Of a stretch of 64,000 nt of DNA, positions 48,615 to 61,674 are shown piece after piece (the stretch's first letter is position 1; the number at the start of each line of letters is the position of its first letter). The translations under genes and the position numbers were made by a program. The notes beneath the pieces are model-generated. The model searched no databases and was not told the origin of the DNA. It worked only from the letters and a program-made list of their open reading frames with translations. This stretch comes from Burkholderia sp. WP9 (GTDB taxonomy: Bacteria > Pseudomonadota > Gammaproteobacteria > Burkholderiales > Burkholderiaceae), in contig NZ_FNTG01000002.1 of the NCBI RefSeq assembly GCF_900104795.1, positions 3,410,001 to 3,474,000 of the forward strand. The letters are read 5' to 3'.

Positions 48615-49703
48615 TTAATGCGCGTTGGCGAGCGAAGGGTCGATATAGGCGCTCACGTTCTGCGACTGCTTGTACACCGCGTTGCGCACGTTGAACTTGT
48701 CGGCATTCACGCTCGAACCGTACACGGAGTCGAGCCCATCGCCTTTGGTGAAGGCCTTCTTCGCCGCCGCGGCGTCGAGCAGGTGCGTGCCTTTGAGCAG
48801 GGGCAGGTACTGCTCCGGCGTCAGGCCGACTCGCGCCGACATGATCTTGACCGCGTCCGGTTGCGTCTTCGGATCGTTGATGTAGGCCACGCAGCGATAC
48901 CAGACCGTGATCACCTTGGCCCAGTCGGCCTTGCGCGATTGCAGGCTGACGGGGTTCACCGTGATCGCGTCGTAGATCAGGCCGGGGGCGTCGGCGGAGG
49001 TGAAGATCGGCCGCGCGCCCGGCACGCGCTTGAGCGCTTCGCCTGCGTTCGGCTGCCAGGCGCCGACGGCGGCGACGTCTTTGGAAGAGGCCAGCACTTG
49101 CGGCAATTCATTGGTCTTCGCGTTGACGAGCGTGAGGTCCGATTCCTTCAGCGCATGTTTTTCGAGCGCGGTGTCGAGCAGCAGGTGATCGACGAGACCC
49201 ATTTCAACGCCGACCTTCTTGCCCTTCAGTCCTTCTACCGTGCGCACCGGCGGCTTCGCGACGATCATGTCGTTGCCGCTCGAATAATCGGTCAGCAGGA
49301 TCATCACGTTCTTCGCGCCGCTTGCGCCCGTCACGAGCGCGTCGCCGTTGGTTGCGCCGACCGCGTCGAGTTTGCCCGCGGCGAATGCATCGAGCGAAGC
49401 CGAGTAGTCGAACCACTGGAAATTGACATCCACGCCGGCTTCCTTGAACCAGCCTTTCTCGATCGCAATCTGGAAAGCGACGAAGCCTGGCCAGTCGCTA
49501 TAGCCGATGGCGAGCGGCGTGGCCGCTTGCGCCGGCGTGGCGGCAAGACCCGCAGTGAGTCCCAAAGTGAGCCCCGCAGTGAGTCCGATATTGAGCGCGG
49601 CGGCGGCCGCGGCGAGCGCGCCACGCACGCGAAGGCCAGCGGCGAAGCGCTGGGGCGAGGCGATTGAATGAAGGGAAGTGCGGACGGATTCGAAGCGTTT
49701 CAT
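48615..49703 (-). CDS. ABC transporter substrate-binding protein (NitT/TauT type), putative guanidine uptake
   Basis: A 362-residue SsuA/TauA-like periplasmic protein: [53 protein letters not shown] opens the mature part after a Sec signal with a repetitive [15 protein letters not shown] core. GGAG is 6 nt from the ATG. A guanidine-I riboswitch and a sigma-54 element precede it. Its permease and ATPase are presumably those at 59.7-61.7 kb, 10 kb away on the other strand; guanidine (or carboxyguanidine) as ligand is inferred from the riboswitch. Confidence 0.88.
49551..49586. repeat. Three 12-bp repeats inside the binding-protein signal peptide
   Basis: CGCAGTGAGTCC (49551-49562), CAAAGTGAGCCC (49563-49574) and CGCAGTGAGTCC (49575-49586) encode, on the minus strand, the [12 protein letters not shown] part of the signal peptide hydrophobic core. 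The first and third units are identical. Repeat number could vary between strains and change signal length by four residues per unit. Confidence 0.65.
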
Positions 49704-49885
49704 CGTTTTCTCCAGGAGACCGGTCAATTGCGATTGTTGAGTTGGATCGCGCGGCGACTGCGCGATGAAACAACATGACCGGCTCCCGCGCGCAAACGAA
49801 CGACAAAGCGCGGAGAACTGCACGAGACAGACGTGCACGAGACAAAAGCCGGCCATGGAGAGGCGCGATAGACATTGCTATCGCC

Positions 49886-50016
49886 AATCTCCCGGGCTTT
49901 TGTCCCGCCGTGTAGTGCGCCCGGCCGTTCGTGCTTGCAATGAAACCTGCAATCGAACCGGCCGGCGTACCGGGCTGCTCTCGGACCAGACATTCTCTCG
50001 AACCGGAACCCTAGCA
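49886..50016 (-). ncRNA. Guanidine-I (ykkC) riboswitch before the binding-protein gene
   Basis: On the minus strand the RNA runs CTAGGGTTCCGG (from 50013), then TCTGGTCCGAGAGCAG (near 49990-49975), a variable stem, then ACACGGCGGGACAAAAGC and CCCGGGAGA (ending near 49887). These are the conserved blocks of the guanidine-I class. Directly after it, GCGATAG (49878-49884) / CTATCGC (49865-49871) can pair, with CTTTT further on, as an expression platform. Guanidine binding should permit expression of the gene starting at 49703. Confidence 0.93.
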
Positions 50017-50058
50017 TCCCTAAGATGCGACGCTGCCGCACCTCTCGGTCAACTAGCT

Positions 50059-58279: not shown

Positions 58280-59742
58280 AATCACACGACGATCTGTTCC
58301 AGTCCATGTCGATCGCCGGGCTGCAGGCGCGCTACCGCGCTGGCAGCCTGACGCCCAAACAACTGGTCGAAGCGATCACCGCGCGCACCTCGGGCGACGA
58401 TCCGCATCATGCGTGGATCCGTCCTTTGAGCCGCGACGAGATGATGCGATACGTCGATGCGCTCGAAGGCCGCGACCTTGAAACGCTGCCGCTGTACGGC
58501 GTACCGTTCGCGATCAAGGACAACATCGACCTGGCCGGTATCCCGACCACGGCCGCGTGCCCCGCCTATGCGTACACACCCACGGCCAGCGCGCCGGTGG
58601 TCGCGCGCCTGATCGCCGCCGGTGCGATTCCGATCGGCAAGACCAACCTCGATCAGTTCGCCACGGGTCTGTCCGGGCAGCGTTCGCCGCACGGCGCGTG
58701 CCGTAACGCGCTCGATCCGCGCTATGCGTCGGGCGGATCGAGCTCCGGCTCGGCGGTTTCGGTCGCGCTCGGGTTGGCGGCGTTTTCGCTGGGCACCGAC
58801 ACAGCAGGCTCGGGGCGCGTGCCCGCGGCGTTTCATGGCCTCGTCGGATTGAAGCCGACCAAGGGTTTGTTGAGCACGGTAGGCGTGGTGCCGGCGTGCA
58901 AATCGCTCGACTGCGTGTCGATCTTCGCGCGCTCGGCGGACGACGCACAGCGCGTGTTCGACGCCGCTCGCGGCGTGACGGAGGGCGATCCATATGCGCG
59001 GGAATTCCAGCCGCCGCAAGACGGCACGCAAGCCTCCACGCAGCACGGCGCGCAACGCTCGCTACGCGGCGTGCGCTTCGGCGTGCCGCGCGCGAACCAG
59101 CTCGAATTTTTCGGCGACACGTCTTACGCACACGCTTTCGACGCCGCGCTGACGCGCCTGCGTTCAGCCGGCGCCGAACTGATCGAGATCGATTTCGAGC
59201 CGTTCCTCGCCACCGCGCGGCTGCTCTACGAAGGACCGTGGGTCGCGGAGCGGCTCGCGGCGATCCGCGAGTTCGTCGACACACAACCGGACGCGCTGCA
59301 TCCGGTGATCCGCGAGATTATCGGCGGCGCGGCGCGCTGGAGTGCGGCCGATGCGTTCGCCGCCTTCGACCGCCTTGCGTTCCTGCGCATGCAGGCGGCC
59401 GAAGTCTGGCCGCGCATCGACGCCATCGTCACGCCGACCTCGGCGACGACCGCCACCGTCGACGAGCTGGAAGCCGATCCGATCCGCGTGAATTCGCGCT
59501 TCGGCTACTACACCAACTTCGTGAACCTGCTCGATCTGTCCGCGCTGGCGGTGCCGGCCGGCGTGTGCACGGTTGGCAAACACGCGGGCCTGCCGTTCGG
59601 CGTGACCTTCGTCGCTCGCGCGCATGAAGACGCGATGCTGCTCGACCTGGCGCGTGCATGGCGCGATCAGATGGCCACGGCGTCACCGTCCGCCAACGAC
59701 GCAACCGAAGTCTGCCTCGGAGAATCCCATGGCCGTCATTGA
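58276..59742 (+). CDS. Allophanate hydrolase, amidase domain only (AtzF-like)
   Basis: A 488-residue amidase-signature protein with Lys81 ([11 protein letters not shown]), Ser155 (SGGSSSGSA) and Ser179 ([12 protein letters not shown]). It follows the full-length AtzF at 37999 throughout its amidase domain ([31 protein letters not shown]), but stops where the roughly 150-residue AtzF C-terminal domain would begin. It should hydrolyse allophanate made by the upstream enzymes. A GTG at 58270 nearer to GGAGG (58261-58265) is an alternative start. Confidence 0.9.
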
Positions 59743-60700
59743 CAGAACCGAATGGTTCGCGGTGCGCCGCGAACTTTCCGTACGCGGCAAATGGCTGTTG
59801 GGCGCGGGCTCGTTCCTGTTGCCGCTCCTCGTCTGGTGCGTGGTCAGCTATGTGCCGTTCATCTGGCATCCGCAGGTGCTGATCGACAGCCCGGGCAGCG
59901 TCGACTATTTTCAGCCGGGCATGCGCGTCGACAAGGAGGTATTCGCCGACGAACTCAGCCACGCGCGCGAAGCGCATGCGGCCCTGCCGGCCGGCGAGCC
60001 GGTCAACCCGGTGTATCTGCCCGCGCCGCACGAAGTGCTGCGCGCGTTCTACACCGCGTTCACCACGCCGCCCGCGTCGCGTGACGGCGTCTGGCTGCAT
60101 CAGAGCCTGTGGCACAGCATTCAGGTGATTTTCTGGGGCTTCGTGCTCTCGTCCGTGATCGGTGTGCCGATCGGCATTGTGTGCGGCACGTATAGCGCGA
60201 TTGCGCGGTTGCAGGAGCCGTTCTTCGAGTTTTTCCGCTACTTGCCGGCGCCCGCGTTCGGCGCGCTGATGGTGGCGATCCTCGGTATTTACGACGGCCC
60301 GAAGATCGCGATCATCGTGATCGGCACGTTGTTCCAGCAGGTGCTGATCGTGGCGAACACCACGCGCAAGCTCGAATATGGCCTGTTCGAAGCCGCCATG
60401 ACGCTCGGCACGAAGAAATTCAAGCTGCTCACGCATGTGGTGATTCCCGGCATTCTGCCGGATCTGTATCGCGACCAGCGCATTCTGCTCGGCTGGGCGT
60501 GGACCTATCTGATCGTCGCGGAACTGGTCGGCACCAGCTCCGGCATCACCTGGTACATCACGCAGCAGGCGCGCTACGAGCATTTCGAGAACGTCTACGC
60601 GGCGATCATGATGATCGGCATCATCGGCCTCGGCACCGATCTCGTGCTGGCGTGGCTCGGCCGCAAGCTGTTTCCGTGGGACCGCACGCTCAAGGCGTAG
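59729..60700 (+). CDS. ABC transporter permease (NitT/TauT type), putative guanidine uptake
   Basis: A 323-residue permease with a first helix near residues 20-42, a long periplasmic loop (to about residue 120), then five helices and the coupling segment [28 protein letters not shown] (about 221-248). It overlaps the amidase gene by 14 bp. It has the SsuC/TauC fold and should form the channel with the 60760 ATPase and the 48615 binding protein. Confidence 0.9.
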
Positions 60701-60759
60701 CAAACGGCCTCGTGACACAGCCTATCGTAAGCAACGCACAGCATTCCAAGGATTCCATC

Positions 60760-61674
60760 ATGTTAAATCCGCAACCGATTCCGTCGTACCTGATTCAGTC
60801 CGAGGCGGTACGCGAGCGTTTCGACCGTCTGAAATCGCGCGAAGTGATTCTGGAGGTGCGCGACCTCGGCAAGCGCTTCGAGACGCCGCAAGGCGAGTGC
60901 ACGGCGCTCGACGGCATCAACTTCAAGACGCACCGGCGCGAGTTCGTCTGCGTGATCGGGCCGTCGGGCTGCGGCAAGTCCACGCTGATCCGCATTCTCG
61001 CCGGTCTGGAGCGGCAGACCAGCGGCAGCGTGCTGCTCGACGGCAAACCCGTGCAGGGGCCGGGCGCCGACCGCGGCATGGTGTTTCAGGGCTACACGCT
61101 GTTTCCATGGCTGACGGTCAAGAAGAACGTCATGTTCGGCCTGAAGATGAACGGCCGCGGCAATCTGCATGCGGAACGCGAGGCGTTGCAATGGCTCGAT
61201 CTGGTGGGCCTGACAAAGTTCGCCAATGCGTATCCGCATCAGTTGTCGGGCGGCATGAAACAGCGCGTGGCGATTGCCCGCGCGCTCGCGAACCGGCCGC
61301 GCATTCTGCTGATGGACGAGCCTTTCGGCGCGCTGGATGCGCAAACGCGCGCCAAGATGCAAACGCACCTGCTCGACATCTGGCGCAACGTCGACGTGAC
61401 CGTGCTGTTCATCACACACGATCTGGACGAGGCGATCTTTCTGGCCGACCGCATTCTGGTCCTGAAGGCGAATCCCGGCGAGGTGCAGGAGTTGATCGAA
61501 GTGCCGGTGCCGCGGCCGCGCGATTACTCGCAGGTGACGTCGCCCGAGTTTCTGGCGACCAAGGCGCGGCTCGAGGCGCTGATTCATCCGCCATCGGAAA
61601 AGAGCGACGACGAGGACGACGTGGTCAAACCGCACATGATTCGTATGACCGATGTCTCGGACAATGTCGAATAG
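60760..61674 (+). CDS. ABC transporter ATP-binding protein (NitT/TauT type), putative guanidine uptake
   Basis: A 304-residue ATPase: Walker [22 protein letters not shown], signature [15 protein letters not shown], Walker [13 protein letters not shown] and [19 protein letters not shown]-terminal acidic tail ([11 protein letters not shown]) is unusual for SsuB/TauB. AAGGAT is 6 nt from the ATG. It is the last gene of the guanidine operon. Confidence 0.91.

What the first reader, a model, noticed from the sequence alone, without database searches (positions are those of the whole stretch)
48615..61674. Guanidine assimilation island with two guanidine-I riboswitches on opposite strands
Both ykkC aptamers are readable directly (53073-53199 on plus, 49886-50016 on minus). 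One controls deiminase subunits, carboxylase, allophanate hydrolase, permease and ATPase; the other controls the binding protein alone, 10 kb away. The ABC importer is therefore split into two transcripts that appear to be reunited by the same ligand. Riboswitch class, carboxylase and DUF1989 deiminase are established families; the split-importer logic is inference.
Basis: partly seen in the sequence, partly recalled or inferred. Interest (0 to 1): 0.75.

Follow-up and report, generated by a model that had tools for sequence, protein, structure and literature searches.

The report
Split guanidine importer, two twin switches
A soil bacterium keeps the parts of its probable guanidine uptake pump on two separate genetic units, and each unit carries its own copy of the same kind of on-switch (a nitrogen-shortage-type promoter plus a guanidine-sensing RNA), so that the parts could move apart in evolution and still be switched on together.

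Summary
Both riboswitches are real. Rfam Guanidine-I matches at 53063-53196 (+, 73.9 bits) and 49887-50025 (-, 73.0 bits; cut-off 63) are the only two in the 9.02-Mb genome. The + unit is a guanidine carboxylase operon ending in permease and ATPase; the - unit encodes the binding protein (SBP).

The split is conserved. Of 78 family genomes found with this SBP, 65 are split and 13 have SBP beside permease. A riboswitch precedes the split SBP in 64 of 65 (the other is cut by a contig end) and the operon in 78 of 78. In three genomes of one genus the halves lie on different contigs, each with its riboswitch.

Split SBPs form one clade; their permease/ATPase partners do not (AU p=1.75e-6). P. silviterrae keeps a fragment of an older SBP beside its permease.

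New: a sigma-54 promoter pattern precedes 65 of 65 and 78 of 78 leaders, and published RNA-seq in B. cenocepacia shows NtrC dependence of genes matching both halves (PMC5491218). Enzymes, pathway and switch are known kinds; guanidine response and transport are untested.

The parts
48615..49703 (-). ABC importer periplasmic substrate-binding protein (SBP), NMT1/SsuA-like, 362 aa
   Evidence: Pfam NMT1 E 6.3e-15; nearest NCBIfam models TIGR03427 and SsuA are below their cut-offs
49857..49893 (-). expression-platform hairpin of the SBP leader, starting at the aptamer's terminal GGGAG (terminator-like)
   Evidence: predicted fold; covariation in 30 of 44 distinct family leaders: 2 pairs with changes on both sides, 15 cells, 0 of 500 shuffles as high on cells
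49887..50025 (-). Guanidine-I riboswitch aptamer, SBP type
   Evidence: RF00442 73.0 bits; lies in a clade of 58 distinct SBP-side aptamers, SH-aLRT 99
50041..50046 (-). 5' leader element GAGAGG, proposed 5' strand of an antiterminator (continues as TGCGG)
   Evidence: sequence; conserved; complementary to the hairpin's 3' arm, own pairing better on average than swapped
50060..50075 (-). sigma-54 promoter pattern TTGGCATATTTCTCGC (GG-N10-GC)
   Evidence: sequence; pattern present in 65 of 65 family SBP leaders, 59-62 nt before CTAGGG
50110..50478 (-). small HTH-like gene of the intervening module (start codon assumed)
   Evidence: ORF, no Pfam or NCBIfam match; conserved beside TIM/DIOX. 'HTH, MarR-like' is my reading of the sequence, not a tool result
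50602..51558 (+). xylose-isomerase-like TIM-barrel protein of the intervening module
   Evidence: Pfam AP_endonuc_2 E 9.5e-9
51573..52634 (+). 2OG/Fe(II) dioxygenase of the intervening module
   Evidence: Pfam DIOX_N and 2OG-FeII_Oxy; nearest PDB sequence 9ovh, named 2-oxoglutarate-dependent ethylene/succinate-forming enzyme, E 2.7e-67
53008..53023 (+). sigma-54 promoter pattern CTGGCACGCTACTCGC (GG-N10-GC)
   Evidence: sequence; pattern present in 78 of 78 family operon leaders, 63-65 nt before CTAGGG
53037..53042 (+). 5' leader element GAGAGG, proposed 5' strand of an antiterminator
53063..53196 (+). Guanidine-I riboswitch aptamer, operon type
   Evidence: RF00442 73.9 bits
53190..53221 (+). 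expression-platform hairpin of the operon leader (GGGAGG...CCTCTC), followed by a T-rich run
   Evidence: predicted fold; conserved, no covariation
53254..54009 (+). carboxyguanidine deiminase subunit (UAAP1 / CgdA-type, DUF1989)
   Evidence: TIGR03425 346.7 bits, cut-off 205.95
54021..54677 (+). carboxyguanidine deiminase subunit (UAAP2 / CgdB-type, DUF1989)
   Evidence: TIGR03424 351 bits, cut-off 284.7
54674..58279 (+). biotin-dependent guanidine carboxylase
   Evidence: TIGR02712 1837.6 bits; Asp at the K. lactis 1330 and 1584 equivalents
58276..59742 (+). allophanate hydrolase, amidase part only (488 aa; no AH_C match)
   Evidence: TIGR02713 583 bits, cut-off 511.05, profile 2-422 of 563; Pfam Amidase only
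59729..60700 (+). ABC importer permease
   Evidence: Pfam BPD_transp_1
60760..61674 (+). ABC importer ATPase
   Evidence: Pfam ABC_tran; best NCBIfam scores include nitrate- and taurine-type models, below cut-off
37999..39876 (+). second allophanate hydrolase, full length with AH_C, in the neighbouring biuret cluster; possible backup for the operon copy
   Evidence: TIGR02713 781.6 bits, Pfam AH_C

Best explanation
This is a guanidine-nitrogen regulon whose ABC importer is encoded in two divergent units. Each unit has the same two-layer leader. First, a sigma-54 promoter (presumably driven by NtrC) starts transcription when nitrogen is short. Second, a Guanidine-I riboswitch decides whether RNA polymerase passes a hairpin built on the aptamer's last nucleotides: without guanidine the hairpin forms; with guanidine the aptamer holds its 3' strand and the 5' end of the leader pairs with the hairpin's 3' arm (antiterminator), so the genes are read. 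The + unit makes permease, ATPase and the enzymes guanidine -> carboxyguanidine -> allophanate -> ammonia; the - unit makes the periplasmic binding protein. Because both leaders carry the same inputs, the SBP unit became independent of the operon: it has been inherited, separated and re-paired with different permease operons without losing its switch. Shown: riboswitch matches, promoter patterns, conservation, physical separation, tree conflict, SBP remnant, covariation of the SBP-side hairpin. Inferred: ON-switch direction, antiterminator action, AND logic, NtrC control in this strain, guanidine as transported substrate.
For: Rfam matches for both. Carboxylase carries both residues used in PMC11410670 to tell guanidine from urea carboxylase. 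Own riboswitch before the split SBP in 64 of 65 genomes; before the SBP in 0 of 13 contiguous genomes; before the operon in 78 of 78 (by regular expression). Rfam finds at least two class I riboswitches in 65 of 65 split genomes and, in the 13 contiguous ones, one each except two in G013 and G023. Unlinked halves in 3 of 3 genomes of one genus, each with an Rfam-grade riboswitch. SBP-side aptamers are one clade (58 distinct, SH-aLRT 99), with three fixed differences from operon-side ones (64 against 78 leaders). Split SBPs form one clade (36 rows, SH-aLRT 94); their PERM+ATPase partners fall in three places (3 changes; AU p=1.75e-6, 0.0015 without P. silviterrae). SBP fragment between atzF and permease in P. 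silviterrae. Sigma-54 pattern before 65 of 65 and 78 of 78 leaders, background 0.0156 per 150 nt. B. cenocepacia H111 ntrC mutant: I35_7283 (periplasmic protein) and I35_7285 zero reads, I35_7286 log2 -6.0 (PMC5491218 Table 1, passages). Hairpin covariation; 5'/3' pairing stronger in own than in swapped leaders, 0 of 20000 permutations.
Against: No guanidine response, binding or transport was measured here. The H111 data were taken under nitrogen limitation; 'guanidine' does not occur in that text, yet the comparison implies that the wild type expressed both halves, so the riboswitch layer must be leaky, or guanidine was present: a strict AND gate is not shown. After the SBP-side hairpin the longest T-run is 3 or less in 60 of 64 leaders, and the terminator scan called neither hairpin, so termination may need Rho or control may be at translation. 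The operon-side hairpin shows no covariation. For the 5'/3' pairing only 3 of 25 leaders pair best with their own arm, and up to half of shuffled 3' arms do as well in some leaders. SBP clade support is 94, just under the 95 mark; the aptamer tree has 99 columns for 124 rows and long branches. The SBP is below the cut-off of TIGR03427, so its ligand is not given by family. An NtrC-like dyad was found by the strict pattern in Burkholderia loci, not for the window.
Confidence: 0.75

Rival explanations
1. Ordinary divergent regulon: the two units simply share one control region, and the split has no function of its own. The second riboswitch exists because divergent transcription needs two leaders.
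For: In 30 of 30 Burkholderia genomes and two Trinickia genomes (L084, L085) the two riboswitches lie back to back, 385-555 nt apart, with none of the module genes between. A GCACY-N5-RGTGC dyad lies upstream of 23 of 64 SBP-side and 23 of 78 operon-side leaders; the 30 of 46 entries printed are all Burkholderia loci.
Against: Tree conflict and the P. silviterrae remnant show the SBP unit changing partners.
Confidence: 0.3
2. The split raises SBP output: a separate promoter lets the binding protein be made in excess over the membrane parts, and the riboswitch only prevents waste.
For: In the contiguous layout the SBP sits about 5-7 kb downstream of the riboswitch, after the enzyme genes. SBPs are generally needed in excess (general knowledge).
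Against: Not tested; the contiguous layout persists in 13 of the 78 genomes.
Confidence: 0.4
3. The importer and SBP serve another small nitrogen compound (urea, methylguanidine, a guanidino acid), and guanidine is only a product that signals through the riboswitches.
For: The SBP has no family model above cut-off. A dioxygenase and TIM-barrel module sits between the two riboswitches; in G049 the same pair stands with an arginine-type importer near an agmatinase-family gene. In V. boliviensis a 2OG dioxygenase and a lyase in the gca operon turn methylguanidine into guanidine (PMC12508155, abstract, first part and passages).
Against: 30 Burkholderia and two Trinickia genomes have the split regulon without the module beside it; Gca carries the guanidine signature.
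Confidence: 0.2
4. Artefact: one riboswitch call or the split is a chance match or an assembly error.
For: None found beyond single contig breaks (G092, G019).
Against: Rfam cut-offs passed; the split layout in 65 of 78 genomes, several assembled in 2-6 contigs.
Confidence: 0.01

Closest known systems
Guanidine carboxylase operons under Guanidine-I (and -II) riboswitches (review PMC12186494, passages; V. boliviensis PMC12508155, abstract, first part and passages)
   Same: Guanidine-I riboswitch, CgdAB, guanidine carboxylase, allophanate hydrolase, three-part ABC importer; two guanidine riboswitches in one gene set
   Different: There the importer genes are described together and the second riboswitch (class II) lies inside the operon; here the importer is split between divergent units, each with a class I riboswitch
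Canonical guanidine operon of the same genus (e.g. G093, G059, G001)
   Same: Riboswitch, SBP, ATPase, CgdAB, carboxylase
   Different: A different SBP (about 30 % identical) is first in the operon, behind one class I riboswitch
Tandem or contiguous riboswitches (PMC12452182, PMC5912903; passages)
   Same: Two riboswitch copies close together
   Different: [quoted passage not shown] here two leaders on opposite strands control two halves of one machine
NtrC/sigma-54 nitrogen regulon of Burkholderia (PMC5491218, passages)
   Same: Genes annotated urea carboxylase and its related periplasmic protein lose expression in an ntrC mutant
   Different: That paper files them under urea transport and use; 'guanidine' does not occur in its text
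MgdH/MgdL methylguanidine demethylation (PMC12508155)
   Same: A 2OG/Fe(II) dioxygenase plus a second protein beside guanidine carboxylase genes

Membership tests
Guanidine-I riboswitch (RF00442) | covariance-model score over the gathering cut-off | tested here: met
   73.9 and 73.0 bits against 63
Guanidine-I riboswitch (RF00442) | binds guanidine and switches expression on | not testable with these tools
   in-line probing or reporter assay needed
Guanidine carboxylase | urea-carboxylase family model | tested here: met
   TIGR02712 1837.6 bits, cut-off 1303.85
Guanidine carboxylase | Asp at K. lactis 1330 (Asn in urea carboxylase) and Asp at 1584 | tested here: met
   read by eye from the alignment to 5i8i: N1330 faces Asp, D1584 faces Asp; criterion from PMC11410670 passages
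Carboxyguanidine deiminase CgdAB | two adjacent DUF1989 subunits of the UAAP1/UAAP2 types | tested here: met
   TIGR03425 and TIGR03424 over cut-off; placement in the CgdA/CgdB clades not tested
Allophanate hydrolase (AtzF) | family model over cut-off | tested here: met
   TIGR02713 583 bits against 511.05
Allophanate hydrolase (AtzF) | C-terminal AH_C domain | tested here: not met
   operon copy matches profile 2-422 of 563 and Pfam Amidase only; AH_C present in the copy at 37999-39876
Guanidine ABC importer | SBP, permease and ATPase present; SBP and permease co-occur | tested here: met
   41 SBP and 40 permease genomes of 117, differing only in G019, whose contig ends
Guanidine ABC importer | SBP model TIGR03427 (urea-carboxylase-associated) over cut-off | tested here: not met
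   139.1 bits against 333.9
Guanidine ABC importer | transports guanidine | not testable with these tools
   uptake or binding assay needed
Sigma-54 promoter | GG-N10-GC with TGGCA and YNGC context at a fixed place | tested here: met
   65 of 65 and 78 of 78 family leaders, 59-62 and 63-65 nt before CTAGGG; 22 of 26 leaders outside that set; consensus recalled
NtrC-activated unit | loss of expression in an ntrC mutant | tested here: inconclusive
   not testable for this strain; published for genes of matching annotation and order in B. cenocepacia H111 (PMC5491218); those locus tags were not compared by sequence
MgdH/MgdL module | sequence homology to both proteins | not tested

The most novel reading that the evidence does not exclude
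Riboswitch plus binding protein is an exchangeable, ligand-addressed importer part. One ancestral SBP with its own sigma-54/Guanidine-I leader spread among Burkholderiaceae and kin, displaced resident SBPs and was coupled to permease operons of at least three lineages, with co-regulation kept by the shared leader rather than by linkage. In many species it travels with an HTH / TIM-barrel / 2OG-dioxygenase module that would release guanidine from an imported guanidino compound, an unrecognised guanidine-producing pathway.
Probability: 0.3. Interest if true: 0.75.

Novelty: new variant of a known kind. Interest (0 to 1): 0.58.

Why it matters
Operons are often explained by the need to co-express parts of one machine. 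Here a machine is split, and comparison across 78 genomes suggests that a duplicated two-input leader (nitrogen shortage plus ligand) can take the place of linkage, even where the halves lie on different contigs and descend from different lineages. That makes a standing question testable: can a shared riboswitch substitute for an operon and free parts for exchange? It also points to a second signal on guanidine genes, names a candidate antiterminator for proteobacterial Guanidine-I switches, suggests that Burkholderia genes filed as urea carboxylase belong to guanidine use, and flags an oxygenase module as a candidate guanidine source.

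Tried and rejected
Chance match or misassembly: rejected by Rfam scores and conservation. Sigma-70 promoters: none found in 48500-54000. The sigma-54 pattern was first scanned with a wrong spacing and found in 1 leader only; corrected. NtrC-like sites: the strict pattern gave 23 of 64 SBP-side and 23 of 78 operon-side leaders. A relaxed pattern (2 mismatches, background 0.287 per stretch) gave 29 of 30 on both sides in Burkholderia, 11 of 13 in contiguous Paraburkholderia, but in split Paraburkholderia 7 of 29 on the operon side and 14 of 28 on the SBP side, so I claim no NtrC site for the window. 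Operon-side hairpin covariation: none; seven of 30 rows fail at four neighbouring pairs, which looks like misregister. An SBP-aptamer signature unique to the split group: not so; 10 of 369 class genomes (own included) have the exact 27-mer; of the ten sites outside the own genome 7 have an SBP-family gene (27-36 % identity) directly downstream, 2 a divergent one and 1 none. Riboswitches in the 50 wider loci L149-L198 (three of them Paraburkholderia): 35 of 47 contiguous loci had none by regular expression in the stretch held; a Rfam scan of seven found no class I and two class II riboswitches, so those operons may be controlled otherwise. PDB names for the dioxygenase (ethylene-forming enzyme) are depositors' names and no proof of activity; the TIM barrel had no PDB sequence match at E 0.01. 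Two P. phymatum transcriptome papers: the five terms searched do not occur. Literature: no held paper holds both 'guanidine riboswitch' and 'NtrC'. The rows listed in searches (6 to 20 shown, in most of them out of larger counts) named no paper on this split layout; subscription papers and supplements were not seen. The 2017 paper that identified the ligand and the earlier H111 sigma-54 paper were not read (recalled or seen as citations).

Trees used 70 rows: 48 of the 78 family genomes and 22 of the 50 wider loci; quick method, so single branches are provisional. Covariation counts used 30 of 44 (SBP) and 30 of 52 (operon) distinct leaders.

Full report
OBSERVATION. Rfam's Guanidine-I model matches the window twice, 53063-53196 on + (73.9 bits) and 49887-50025 on - (73.0 bits), both over the gathering score of 63 and over the full model. 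No other match was found in the 9.02-Mb genome. The + riboswitch precedes CgdA, CgdB, a urea-carboxylase-family enzyme, an allophanate hydrolase, an ABC permease and an ABC ATPase; the - riboswitch precedes an NMT1-type substrate-binding protein, SBP. An MreB-like gene follows the SBP on the same strand after about 160 nt, so 'SBP alone' is likely but not certain.

ENZYMES. The carboxylase has Asp where K. lactis urea carboxylase has Asn1330, and Asp at 1584 (read by eye from the alignment). PMC11410670 (passages) uses these two residues to tell guanidine from urea carboxylases. A regular expression found the first Asp in 111 of 117 carboxylase matches in the loci I hold; the other six did not fit the expression. 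The operon's allophanate hydrolase (488 aa) has no AH_C match. Measured from the match start, it is 481-523 residues in the window and ten split relatives and 485-487 in two contiguous ones, and 595-656 in the rest of the loci listed. It is absent between carboxylase and permease in 9 split genomes, and a tenth locus (L033, contiguous) gave no match there either (76 loci examined). A full-length copy with AH_C lies at 37999-39876 in a biuret-type cluster (BiuH over cut-off at 43168-43860), so allophanate could be cleared by that enzyme.

CONSERVATION OF THE SPLIT. A scan of 117 genus genomes found the SBP in 41 and the permease in 40 at E 1e-60; the odd one, G019, has its operon cut by a contig end. 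A scan of 398 family genomes raised the number with this SBP to 78. Besides the window I fetched the loci of the other 77 and annotated them by tblastn and a riboswitch expression. Result: 65 split and 13 contiguous. Of the 65, 59 show SBP and permease on opposite strands of one stretch; G019 and G028 run off the stretch; G092 is broken between contigs; three genomes of group g17 are unlinked. A riboswitch stands directly before the SBP in 64 of 65 split genomes (G092's SBP ends 7 nt from a contig end, and its riboswitch is near the end of another contig) and in 0 of 13 contiguous ones. A riboswitch stands before CgdA in 78 of 78. Rfam finds at least two class I riboswitches in each of the 65 split genomes, and one in each contiguous genome except two in G013 and G023. 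Contigs of equal length tie some handles to names: G089 is P. xenovorans LB400, G407 B. cenocepacia, G132 Pararobbsia silviterrae, G149 and G229 Trinickia, G018 P. silviterrae. A Herbaspirillum MAG has the barest form: SBP and permease-ATPase on opposite strands, each with its own riboswitch, 293 nt apart.

THE HALVES COME APART. In g17 (3 of 3; one is Pararobbsia) the SBP with riboswitch and the operon with riboswitch are on different contigs; in G152 contig lengths put them at least about 228 kb apart. Trees: split SBPs form one clade (36 rows, SH-aLRT 94), whereas their permease+ATPase partners fall in three places. Forcing the partners into one clade is rejected (p-AU 1.75e-6; 0.0015 without P. 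silviterrae). The P. silviterrae partner lies inside the contiguous group, and a fragment of a contiguous-type SBP (matches within residues 2-103 of a 358-residue relative) remains between its atzF and permease. Of the other 62 loci searched, one gave a chance-level match (E 0.48) and the rest none. The simplest reading is that a riboswitch-SBP unit of single origin replaced resident SBPs; transfer of the operon instead would uncouple the halves just as well. SBP-side aptamers are also one clade (58 distinct sequences, SH-aLRT 99, 99 columns), with three fixed differences from the operon-side aptamers (one of the 64 was read by eye). The same aptamer half occurs outside the family, in 7 of 10 sites directly before other SBP genes, so it may have been recruited rather than copied from this operon.

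THE LEADERS. Both leaders carry a sigma-54 promoter pattern (TGGCA-N6-YNGC): 65 of 65 SBP-side and 78 of 78 operon-side leaders in the family, at 59-62 and 63-65 nt before CTAGGG, and 22 of 26 leaders outside that set; the background is 0.0156 per 150 nt, true sites included. A GCACY-N5-RGTGC dyad, NtrC-like by recall, lies upstream of 23 of 64 SBP-side and 23 of 78 operon-side leaders, expected 0.01; the 30 of 46 entries printed are all Burkholderia, where it lies between the two promoters. I claim none for the window. PMC5491218 (passages only) reports for a B. cenocepacia H111 ntrC mutant zero reads for I35_7283 'urea carboxylase-related ABC transporter, periplasmic protein' and for I35_7285, and log2 -6.0 for I35_7286 'urea carboxylase'. 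The tags run in the order of the split locus; I did not compare them by sequence. The authors filed them under urea transport and use. No added guanidine is mentioned, so the expression in the wild type that this implies argues for a leaky switch or guanidine already present.

THE SWITCH. In both window leaders the predicted minimum-energy fold ends in a hairpin that begins with the aptamer's terminal GGGAG. On the SBP side this hairpin covaries: 2 pairs change on both sides, 15 cells, 0 of 500 shuffles as high on cells, though 139 of 500 on the number of pairs. On the operon side it is conserved without covariation. Upstream of the aptamer 66 of 72 SBP-side and 80 of 82 CgdA-side leaders have GRGRGG, almost always GAGAGG; 0 of 12 canonical-operon leaders do. 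GAGAGG is complementary to the hairpin's CCUCUC arm. Divergent leaders keep the match with other letters: GGGAGGTGCG/CGCGCCTCCC, CGAGGGGCG/CGCCCCTCG, GAGGGTGCCGGT/ATTGGCACCCTC, GCAGGAGC/GCTCCTGC. Over 25 distinct leaders own pairing is stronger than swapped pairing (mean -16.2 against -13.5; 0 of 20000 permutations as good); a loop-tolerant version on 21 leaders gives 2 of 20000. Against this, only 3 of 25 leaders pair best with their own arm, and in some leaders up to half of shuffled arms do as well. The leaders are related, so permutations overstate the evidence. The antiterminator fold costs 4.4 and 5.2 kcal/mol over the minimum in the two window leaders, a gap a ligand could pay. I read both as ON switches by transcription control; weak T-runs and no call by the terminator scan leave Rho or translation open.

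THE MODULE BETWEEN. HTH-like, TIM-barrel and 2OG dioxygenase genes lie beside the riboswitches in 25 of 29 split genomes of the own genus, in Trinickia G149 and in 3 of 3 g17 genomes, but not in 30 Burkholderia, two Trinickia, nor G092, G102 and G103; G028 keeps only the TIM barrel. In g17 the module stays with the SBP unit, not with the operon. The dioxygenase occurs in 28 and the TIM barrel in 29 of 117 genus genomes. In G049, where the pair lies elsewhere, it stands with an arginine-type SBP (below cut-offs) and a permease-ATPase fusion, and an agmatinase-family gene (over the TIGR01230 cut-off) follows beyond a gene that I read as LysR-like; G044 has the fusion and the agmatinase-family gene too, its SBP was not checked. 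In a Verrucomicrobiaceae MAG a TIM barrel, a desaturase-family protein and a relative of this SBP are adjacent. A role in releasing guanidine from a guanidino compound is a plausible lead, by analogy with MgdH/MgdL (PMC12508155), and is not shown.

VERDICT. The finding is right and understated in one respect: the split is conserved across genera and the halves change partners, and guanidine is one of probably two shared inputs. Pathway, enzymes and riboswitch class are established; the layout and its evolutionary behaviour are a new variant of a known kind.

Noticed in passing
window 37999-46542: Biuret-type nitrogen cluster next to the guanidine island: full-length allophanate hydrolase, Bmp-type ABC importer, biuret amidohydrolase over cut-off at 43168-43860, a second BiuH-like protein below cut-off, HpxZ-family protein, GntR-like regulator. 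Allophanate is the shared intermediate.
   Followed up: partly
window 58276-59742; L008, L009, L011, L012, L014, L015, L017, L018, L019: The guanidine operon's allophanate hydrolase lacks its AH_C part in the window and is short in its close relatives; the whole gene is missing between carboxylase and permease in nine split relatives.
   Followed up: partly
L048 (G057) and L056 (G041): L048 shows two class I riboswitches on the same strand about 6.5 kb apart, one before an importer of another type and one before the enzymes; G041 has two class I riboswitches on different contigs, one of them before such an importer.
   Followed up: no
L032, 14462-14647 of the reverse strand: Remnant of a contiguous-type SBP gene between atzF and permease in P. 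silviterrae.
   Followed up: yes
L047 5168-11657; L046: TIM-barrel and 2OG dioxygenase pair with an arginine-type importer, near an agmatinase-family gene.
   Followed up: partly
L156 and L193: In these two wider relatives a creatininase-like and a glutamine-synthetase-like gene follow the importer ATPase (my reading; families not scanned).
   Followed up: no
L202 and L208: Outside the family, two sites of the SBP-type aptamer half have an SBP-family gene on the opposite strand, possible further divergent layouts.
   Followed up: no
window 15347-15439 (-): Glycine riboswitch aptamer, 70 bits.
   Followed up: no
window 47410-48453 (-): MreB-like gene directly after the SBP; found beside it (98-100 % identity) in 19 of the split Paraburkholderia loci including the window, in none of the 30 Burkholderia loci.
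   Followed up: no
literature: PMC10061817 (passages) lists 'uca, urea carboxylase' of Burkholderia pyrrocinia P10 as up-regulated (2.64) by peanut root exudate; whether it is this gene was not checked.
   Followed up: no
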